A DNA stretch of 64,000 nt from Rikenella microfusus (lineage in GTDB: Bacteria; Bacteroidota; Bacteroidia; Bacteroidales; Tenuifilaceae): contig DYKO01000011.1 in the NCBI GenBank assembly GCA_020722565.1, positions 1-64,000 of the forward strand, given 5' to 3'. The notes under the pieces are model-generated. The model was not told the origin of the DNA and made no database searches. It was given only the letters and a program-made list of their open reading frames with translations. Of this stretch, positions 18,678 through 21,048 are shown in pieces (position 1 is the stretch's first letter; each line of letters opens with the position of its first letter). The position numbers and the translations under genes are program-made.

Positions 18678-19300
18678 TTAGGGCATACCGTTTCTCATCC
18701 AAAGAACTTTTTTTGAAATGGGATCAAACATGATGCTTAAAAACTCATCTGTGAATTCACCTGATGAAACTTTTAATGAGAAATTTACTGTTCTTCCATT
18801 GATTACCGCATCCTTGTAATTGGGGAATGCGGTGGCCAGTGCGTCGATGGGTTTGCCCACCTCTAGGATGGCCCCCTTAACGCTTAACTTAAATCTGGGG
18901 CCATCAATATTAAAAAAATCTAAATCCCCATTGGGTGATATTATAAAGTAGGCACCCGGGTAAATCCATTTTTTCCCCCATATCTCGTCCATCTCATAGT
19001 AGTAGTCAGAAATGTTCTCGGGTTCCCCGAATATGGTTGAGAGCCCATTTATTCCTATTCCTTTTTCCAAAAATTATACTGTTTGCCGTTTGGTCCAATA
19101 ATTATAACATCGGAGTAAAAAATTTTAAGGGATTTGTCGGGCTCTGAAGCTCGAACAGTAGGGTTGGCCTTACTGTAGCGGTGCTGGTTTGTGTACGATA
19201 TGCTTGGACTGTAATTGTTATGGCCAAAACGTACCTGGGTAAAGGCAGCAGCCAAAACCAGGCTGAAAGCTGTTAAGTTGATGGTTTTAATCATACTCAT
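18678..19300 (-). pseudogene. Small exported protein, split by a frameshift at a T5 run
   Basis: Two ORFs (19055-19300, 81 aa, and 18678-19070, 130 aa) are best read as one gene of about 205 residues. The first has a signal peptide (MIKTINLTAFSLVLAAAFTQ) and ends ...GPNGKQYNFWKKE-stop. The second has only a TTG start inside the overlap and no signal of its own. Adding one T to the minus-strand T5 run at 19069-19073 gives a seamless join (QYNFLEKGIGINGLSTIFGE). The C-terminal part is rich in aromatic and Gly-Asp residues; no family is recognised. It starts 2 bases after the M23-lipoprotein gene, so they form one operon. Decay, slippage or sequencing error are all possible. Confidence 0.6.
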
Positions 19301-19302
19301 GG

Positions 19303-20776
19303 CTAAAATGTTTTAGGTTGTGGTTTTTGATTGTTGCAGGGCGAGTAAATTTCCTCGCCGGTTTTATAGTCGAAAGCAGAGGGCAGGTACCTGTCGGGGT
19401 TGCACAGGGAATACTCCGTATAGGTGCTGCCGTTTCTACTCTCCACCCATTTATTGGTAGCGCTATCGGAGTATCTCACCTGTAGGTGCACGTGTGGCTT
19501 AGTACCATCATCATTTGCATTACCTGTTTTTCCGCTAAGCCCCAGCATGGTGGAGTGGAATACCCTATCGCCCACCTTTACGTTGACCGTGTTCAGGTGG
19601 GCAAAGCGCACTCTTATCTTTTGCCCGTTAACACTGTACTCCACCCACACATAGTTGTCGTAGCTTATACCATCGTAATAGTTGGAGGGAAGGTTGCCAA
19701 CCAGCGGGCTAACCACCACCCCATTATCCCATGGGGAGTACACCGGTGTGTTGGGCTCTGCATAAAGGTCAAGTCCATCATGGAATTTGGTGACCAATTT
19801 ACCGTTATTATCACGTTGCGTTCTTCTCCAGCCGTAGGTTCCCCCCCCCGTACCCCACTATTCTGGGTGGGGCAAATCTGCATGGTTACCAAAGGGCTAC
19901 CCGTGCAGGGTAGGGTTGGTTTTGATGGGTTGCTGGGGATGTTTGGGTTGTAGCCGCTGCCTCCACCTCCGCCAGTAGGGTAATCGCCCGGATTGGGAGT
20001 AACACCACCGCTACTGTTGCCACTACCGTCGCCACCGCCTGTTCCATCACCCGAATCGGTAGATGAGCAATCAACCTCGGTGTACAGGTAGGTACACTCA
20101 GATGTAACGGTTGAGGCAGAACCCGGACATGAGTACCAGTCAGTGATATCGCAATCTTCCTGCTGGTACTTTTGCGAACCCCAATTTTCTCTCTCTTTTT
20201 CAGAAAGGAAGGTGAACTGGGGCCTGTCAAGGCAAAGTATCTGCCCATCATGGGTATAGCGATATCCACGCTGAAAGCTTAGCTGCCAATCGTAAATCTG
20301 TATGGTACCGCAAAAGGGTTTTTTGTTGGGGGATTCTTCATCGTTGTTTACAGCCGTTGGGGTTACGATAACAAACTCTGCCACCATTTTCCCGTTACCG
20401 TTGCGGTACATCATAAGGTACGAAAGTTGCTCAAGCGGTATAAGTTTTTCCCCTTTTTCTCCAGGTTTACTAAAAAAGTTTTCTGAAAAGGATAGCCGGA
20501 TAACCGCAGCATGGCCTAGGGAAATGTTTCTTAAATAGGCCAATGACCAATCGGGTTGCTTGTAAATTCCCGCTAAGGGATGTTCCTCTTTTGTTGCATT
20601 TGAGCTAGGGCTGGAACTTTTGCTCATCTGGTTAAATTCATCAATACATTCCTGAATAAAGGTTTGGGGTTCAAATTCATATTCAAACCTATCATTCTGG
20701 CATGAATGAATAAACACTAAAGTAAAAAAAATCACTAGTTTTAGTAGTGGGGGGGATAAAATCTCATATTTTTCAT
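19303..20776 (-). pseudogene. Lipoprotein with C-terminal M23 peptidase domain, frameshifted at two homopolymers
   Basis: ORFs 19665-20735 and 19303-19797 are parts of one gene. The N-terminal part is lipoprotein-like (LVIFFTLVFIHSC), followed by a region of unknown fold and a Gly/Ser/Pro-rich linker. The second ORF carries an M23 (lysostaphin-type) endopeptidase domain: KFHDGLDLYAEPNTPVYSP, GNANDDGTKPHVHLQVRY with the HxH metal ligands. Between them, at the minus-strand G9 run (19841-19849), one more G or two fewer restores ...NSGVRGG-TYGWRRTQRDNNGK.... Upstream, the C7 run (20749-20755) likewise breaks the frame between ATG 20776 (MKNMRFYPP) and LLKLVIFF; only a GTG at 20735 remains. The intact product would cleave peptidoglycan or similar peptides at the envelope. 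Confidence 0.7.
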
Positions 20777-20845
20777 AGTTTTAATGGTTTAATCACCTAA
20801 TCTTTCGATTTTTGGTGCTTAACTCGGCTACTTTTAATTTTTAAA

Positions 20846-20905
20846 GGCCTGTGGGATGTCGGTTTTCGCTTTCACATCCCCGACACCCAAACCGGGTGGT
20901 TGGCC
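20846..20905. other. Compact intergenic structure: two hairpins inside a GGCC stem
   Basis: GGGATGT/ACATCCC (20853-20859 with 20874-20880) and CACCC/GGGTG (20884-20888 with 20894-20898) are two neighbouring hairpins, enclosed by GGCC (20846-20849) and GGCC (20902-20905). It lies between the 3' end of the ClC gene and the 5' end of the broken M23 lipoprotein gene. On the plus strand a T8 run follows some 15 bases later. Candidate structured leader, terminator or element end; no known RNA family recognised. The remainder of 20777-21048 is AT-rich with nothing else evident. Confidence 0.4.
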
Positions 20906-21048
20906 CGTTCTATGCAGTTACTTTTTTTTAACCTTCAATAATGAGTAATATAAAAAATTGCAATGCTGCAAAACAGCTATTCAAATTTATATAAAATTTT
21001 ATTTAAATGTGTTTAATCCTTTATGAAAAAAAATAATAAAATGCTATG

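What the first reader, a model, noticed from the sequence alone, without database searches (positions are those of the whole stretch)
19835..19855. G9 run splits an M23 peptidase lipoprotein into two frames: slippage-prone switch or error
Read on the minus strand, the sequence up to the G9 run encodes ...QNSGVRGG, and the M23 domain picks up in a different frame as TYGWRRTQRDNNGKLVTKFHDG. Changing the run by +1 or -2 fuses them perfectly. Long G runs are classic slipped-strand sites for phase-variable surface proteins. A G7 run occurs twice in tsaD without harm, so runs of that length are not generally misread here.
Basis: partly seen in the sequence, partly recalled or inferred. Interest (0 to 1): 0.6.

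Follow-up and report, generated by a model that had tools for sequence, protein, structure and literature searches.

The report
Broken toxin-like cell-wall lipoprotein gene
A gene for a surface lipoprotein that ends in a cell-wall-cutting enzyme is broken at two short single-letter DNA runs, and its neighbour is broken too; it looks like a recently dying, optional bacterial competition gene, although a real on/off switch at a run of Cs near its start cannot be excluded.

Summary
A G9 run (minus strand, 19841-19849) separates an N-terminal lipoprotein frame from an M23 peptidase frame; the second lies -1 to the first. A same-genus relative (G001) reads straight through the site, so the two halves were one gene. 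(1) The gene has a second break, at a C7 run just after the start codon (20749-20755); G001 has C9 there, in frame. (2) The next gene is also broken (about 19062-19073) but intact, twice, in G001. (3) G001's own M23 gene carries an in-frame TGA. (4) In five other same-genus genomes the flanking genes abut and the locus is absent. About 50 syntenic genes in the 64 kb are otherwise intact, and the other G/C runs of 9-10 in this genome are in frame, so systematic miscalling is unlikely. Substitutions show purifying selection until recently. Distant relatives share the N-domain with other C-terminal domains and a downstream secreted protein, which suggests a lipoprotein polymorphic toxin with an immunity gene. 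Best reading: a recently inactivated accessory toxin/immunity-like locus whose G run was one slippage-prone breaking point. Phase variation, if real, sits more plausibly at the 5' C tract. Reads would decide.

The parts
20791..20918 (-). Conserved 5' leader with four potential RNA helices (22 pairs), upstream of the lipoprotein gene
   Evidence: 88% mean column identity to G001 in this alignment, 22/22 pairs kept, 4 with changes on both sides; found only here and in G001; no Rfam match
20741..20776 (-). Probable original start ATG (20776-20774); its frame now ends at TAA 20743-20741 (MKNMRFYPPHY*)
   Evidence: sequence; position matches the ATG of the G001 gene, MRIHRIFIPPPKRIKK...
20749..20755 (-). 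C7 run after the start codon, first frame break; C9 and in frame in G001
19850..20735 (-). N-terminal part: lipoprotein signal remnant (lipobox ..FIHSC, Cys at 20702-20700), conserved N-domain, Cys-rich stretch, Gly-rich linker
   Evidence: 51% identity to G001; N-domain relatives in G493 and G801
19841..19849 (-). G9 run, second frame break (the finding)
19303..19839 (-). M23 peptidase domain in the -1 frame; HxxxD (FHDGLD) and HxH (PHVHL) metal-binding motifs present
   Evidence: Pfam PF01551 4.9e-15; 70% identity to G001
19055..19300 (-). First part of the downstream gene (signal-peptide-like start, candidate immunity protein), ends early at TAG
   Evidence: intact 200-aa homologues, two tandem copies, in G001
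19062..19073 (-). T5GGA5: third frame break, inside the downstream gene
   Evidence: one search compared with the intact G001 copies
18678..19073 (-). Second part of the downstream gene, in the other frame
   Evidence: 55% identity to G001 residues 89-209

Best explanation
The G9 run is one of two frame breaks in a single accessory gene for an outer-surface lipoprotein with a C-terminal M23 peptidoglycan peptidase. The gene most likely belonged to a polymorphic-toxin-like pair with the secreted protein encoded just downstream as its immunity protein. In this genome the pair has recently been inactivated. Replication slippage at the C run after the start codon and at the G run before the M23 domain broke the toxin-like gene, and a small indel broke the downstream gene. 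The related species G001 still has the locus but with a stop codon in the M23 domain, and other species of the genus lack it. Shown: the breaks, the fused homologue, the synteny, the absent sites and past purifying selection. Inferred: the toxin/immunity role, slippage as the cause, and that the state is fixed.
For: Fused homologue at the same syntenic place. Three frame breaks within 2 kb and two adjacent genes of the window, while about 50 other syntenic genes are full length in both genomes. Independent in-frame TGA in the G001 M23 domain. In G002-G006 the CLC and DUF5063-like genes that flank the locus lie about 100-330 bases apart with nothing between them. The window and G001 are not sisters in a tree of flanking proteins, so several losses, or transfer, are implied. 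Lesions are recent: synonymous differences near saturation (pS 0.71-0.78) but pN only 0.33 (N part) and 0.19 (M23), both remaining frames are free of other stops, and the M23 metal ligands are kept. Toxin-like design: N-domain relatives in G493 and G801 carry different C-termini (weak C39-like and Lnb-like matches), each followed by a secreted protein of 180-200 aa. G001 has an 813-base tandem duplication of the M23 gene's 3' end plus the downstream gene.
Against: Two of the three breaks lie at the longest G/C runs of the region, and the C run is shared with G001 at a different length, which is what a phase-variable locus would look like. All three breaks have the same direction, as homopolymer undercalling would give. 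No reads were available, so fixation is not shown. Toxicity and immunity are untested, and immunity rests on gene order and the duplication only.
Confidence: 0.56

Rival explanations
1. Phase-variable locus: slipped-strand mispairing at the C tract just after the start codon (and perhaps at the G9 run) turns the M23 lipoprotein on and off; the assembled genome shows an OFF allele.
For: A C tract at the same signal-peptide position in two species whose synonymous sites are near saturation, C9 in frame in G001 and C7 out of frame here. Three of the six G/C runs of 7 or more in 144 kb of the two genomes fall in this gene. Coding-region G/C tracts are typical of strong phase-variation candidates in meningococci (PMC5084427).
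Against: A single flip would not restore the gene, since it has two breaks. The downstream gene is broken at a short non-tract site and G001 has a TGA, neither of which a switch explains. The G run is absent from G001. Of the other G/C tracts of 8 or more in this genome nearly all are in frame inside intact ORFs, many housekeeping-like, so there is no genome-wide contingency-locus pattern. CCC is already 34-41% of proline codons, so a short C run is not very unlikely.
Confidence: 0.27
2. Assembly or consensus error: homopolymers undercalled by one base; the genes are intact in the cell.
For: All three window breaks are in the same direction and at homopolymers; the open frames and catalytic motifs are otherwise perfect.
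Against: About 50 syntenic genes show no other break. A G10 and other G9 runs in the genome are in frame. Three errors confined to the one accessory locus, with an unrelated nonsense codon in the relative, would be a coincidence.
Confidence: 0.13
3. Programmed -1 ribosomal frameshifting or transcriptional slippage on the G run produces the fused protein from the sequence as it stands.
For: In the upstream frame the run can be read as G_GGG_GGG and the M23 frame is -1.
Against: G001 has no slippery run at the site and needs no shift. The same trick would also be needed at the C7 run and in the downstream gene. No recoding signal is conserved.
Confidence: 0.03

Closest known systems
SitA/SitI lipoprotein polymorphic toxins of myxobacteria (PMC5562445)
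   Same: Toxin itself is a lipoprotein; shared N-terminal region with unrelated C-terminal domains; immunity gene immediately downstream; accessory distribution
   Different: No SitB-like gene or TraA-based exchange was found or tested; N-domain homology to SitA was not tested; the C-terminus is a peptidoglycan peptidase; toxicity unproven
Polymorphic toxin systems in general (Zhang et al. 2012, PMC3482391)
   Same: Conserved N-terminus, linker, swappable C-terminal enzyme, downstream small gene; Imm65 of Bacteroidetes likewise has a signal peptide and lipobox
   Different: No known immunity family matched; no toxin family other than M23 was identified
Homopolymer (SSM) phase-variable surface genes, e.g. 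Neisseria (PMC5084427)
   Same: G/C tracts inside the coding region, one next to the start codon, length differing between relatives
   Different: No within-population variation known; several further lesions; only two genomes have the gene
M23 family peptidases (PF01551)
   Same: Domain match, HxxxD and HxH motifs
   Different: Fused to an accessory lipoprotein N-domain; unlike the two housekeeping-type M23 genes elsewhere in this genome

Membership tests
M23 peptidase | Pfam profile above the curated cut-off, with metal-binding HxxxD and HxH motifs | tested here: met
   55.9 bits against cut-off 28.7; FHDGLD and PHVHL in the sequence
Pseudogene / decaying accessory gene | Intact homologue spans the break | tested here: met
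   G001 reads through the site in one frame
Pseudogene / decaying accessory gene | More than one independent lesion, and loss in relatives | tested here: met
   C7, G9, downstream T5GGA5; TGA in G001; absent in G002-G006
Pseudogene / decaying accessory gene | Lesions fixed in the population | not testable with these tools
   needs reads or further isolates
SSM phase-variable locus | Slippage-prone tract within or next to the gene whose length decides the frame | tested here: met
   C7/C9 tract after the start codon and G9 tract
SSM phase-variable locus | Tract conserved, with length differing between relatives | tested here: inconclusive
   met for the C tract (7 versus 9, two genomes only), not met for the G run (GGCGG in G001)
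SSM phase-variable locus | Mixed tract lengths within a population | not testable with these tools
SSM phase-variable locus | Gene otherwise intact, so that one tract change restores it | tested here: not met
   two breaks in the gene, and the downstream gene is broken as well
Polymorphic toxin | Shared N-terminal region with different C-terminal domains | tested here: met
   G493 and G801 relatives (E 1e-12 and 7.6e-4) carry other C-termini
Polymorphic toxin | Cognate immunity gene downstream | tested here: inconclusive
   small secreted protein downstream in all four loci; no known immunity family matched
Polymorphic toxin | Toxicity and neutralisation | not testable with these tools
   needs expression assays
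Programmed -1 frameshift | Slippery site conserved in homologues | tested here: not met
   G001 has no run and no shift at the site

The most novel reading that the evidence does not exclude
A lipoprotein-type, M23-tipped interbacterial toxin of Bacteroidota whose expression is phase-variable through a C tract in its signal peptide and further controlled by a conserved structured 5' leader RNA of an undescribed family.
Probability: 0.13. Interest if true: 0.65.

Novelty: new member of a known kind. Interest (0 to 1): 0.3.

Why it matters
If it is decay, it is a snapshot of how an accessory competition gene dies: lesions at single-letter runs, the candidate immunity gene lost with it, independent breakage in a related species and absence in the rest of the genus. 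It also warns that a single homopolymer frameshift should not be called a switch before the rest of the gene is checked. If the C tract is a real switch, it would be a homopolymer-switched lipoprotein toxin in Bacteroidota; a literature search for homopolymeric phase variation of lipoproteins in that phylum returned no such case among the few papers held.

Tried and rejected
Gene search in genome contigs and viral contigs with this protein: no relatives. The N-domain profile over the family (27 genomes) and order (393 genomes) found only G001, plus weak signal-region hits in G238 whose protein carries no M23 domain. Rfam gave nothing above threshold in the leader; an exact-pattern scan for the leader in genome contigs was empty. 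tRNA/tmRNA: none. Structure predictions of the downstream protein and of the N-domain were too poor (mean pLDDT 57 and 49) to justify a fold search. PDB profile search: nothing meaningful. A mobile element with terminal repeats: no convincing inverted or direct repeats at the ends. The dN/dS figure for the downstream gene (18% identity) comes from a misregistered segment and is not used; the protein alignment is.

Full report
Observation. The minus strand carries G9 at 19841-19849, the only G/C run of 8 or more in the window. A second-order Markov model predicts about 4 G/C runs of 7 or more in the window (4 seen) and 0.28 of 9 or more (1 seen). The frame upstream of the run encodes a lipoprotein-like N-part; the frame after it, displaced by -1, encodes an M23 peptidase (PF01551, 4.9e-15) with the HxxxD and HxH motifs.

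One gene, not two. The same-genus genome G001 has a homologue in the same place (51% identity in the N-part, 70% in the M23 part) that reads through the site in one frame..SGIVGGTYGW.., with GGCGG where the window has the G run.

More lesions than reported. (a) The probable start codon, ATG at 20776, is followed by C7 (20749-20755) and its frame ends at TAA 20743-20741; the rest of the signal peptide and the lipobox (..FIHSC) lie in another frame. G001 has a C9 tract in the same position, in frame. The only start codon left in the window's N frame is a GTG (20735) that would give a signal peptide without a basic N-region. (b) The next gene, 200 aa and intact in two tandem copies in G001, is split in the window at T5GGA5 (19062-19073). 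(c) The G001 M23 gene has an in-frame TGA inside the M23 domain, with the frame open on both sides of it.

Not general sequence noise. The ORFs of the 64 kb window were compared with 80 kb of the syntenic G001 contig: about 50 genes are full length in both, and these two adjacent genes are the only broken ones. Across the 2.84 Mb genome 23 G/C tracts of 8 or more were examined; nearly all lie in frame in long ORFs, among them a G10 and several G9. One other broken case, a metallophosphoesterase on contig C32, has several frame changes and what looks like a nonsense codon, and so looks like a true pseudogene.

Accessory, and lost elsewhere. In G002-G006 the genes on either side (CLC channel and DUF5063-like; the second name is from my own recognition, not a tool hit) are separated by about 100-330 bases with no trace of the locus. 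A tree of the flanking proteins places the window's genome apart from G001, which groups with G003-G005. Either the locus is old and was lost repeatedly, or it moved between species into the same site. Synonymous differences between the two copies are near saturation while non-synonymous ones are limited (pS 0.78 and pN 0.33 in the N-part; 0.71 and 0.19 in M23), so both halves were under purifying selection for most of their history and the breaks are recent.

What it was. A profile of the N-domain finds relatives in other Bacteroidota (G493, E 1e-12; G801, 7.6e-4). They are lipoproteins with the same N-domain but different C-termini (weak matches to Peptidase_C39_2 and Lnb_N), each followed by a small secreted protein. 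G001 carries an 813-base tandem duplication made of the last part of the M23 gene plus the downstream gene. This is the anatomy of polymorphic toxins, and a lipoprotein toxin has precedent in SitA (PMC5562445). Bacteroidetes immunity proteins with a signal peptide and lipobox are known (Imm65, PMC3482391). The toxin/immunity role is inferred, not shown. If it is right, losing the immunity gene makes a return of the toxin harmful, which favours a permanently dead locus over a switch.

Switch or decay. The best argument for phase variation is the C tract after the start codon, kept in both species at different lengths and in different frames although synonymous sites are near saturation; three of the six G/C runs of 7 or more in 144 kb of the two genomes lie in this gene. 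Against it: two breaks in the gene, a break in the next gene at a non-tract site, the relative's nonsense codon, absence of the G run in the relative, and frequent use of CCC for proline (34-41%). The decisive datum, run lengths in reads, was not available. Weights: decay 0.56, phase variation 0.27, assembly error 0.13, programmed frameshift 0.03.

Leader. 20791-20918 is 88% identical to G001 by alignment column, more conserved than the protein it precedes. All 22 proposed pairs are kept, four with changes on both sides. With two sequences the support is modest (29 of 500 shuffles reach it). It is found in no other of 40 relatives and matches no Rfam family. It may be a regulatory RNA of the locus.

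Noticed in passing
window 20791-20918 (-); L050 7319-7447 (-): Leader upstream of the lipoprotein gene is 88% conserved between two species with saturated synonymous sites, with four helices and four double-sided pair changes; no Rfam match; only these two copies found.
   Followed up: partly
L053 around 5510 (G000 C32:85509): Metallophosphoesterase-like gene broken at a G8 run and at further places, with an apparent nonsense codon: a second probable pseudogene in this genome.
   Followed up: partly
L050 4324-5794 (G001 C14): 813-base tandem duplication of the M23 gene's 3' end plus the downstream gene, resembling orphan toxin-tip/immunity modules.
   Followed up: yes
L080 1945-4405 and L081 2081-4016: Lipoproteins with the same N-domain and other C-terminal domains, each with a secreted small protein downstream: an apparently undescribed lipoprotein polymorphic-toxin-like family in Bacteroidota.
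   Followed up: partly
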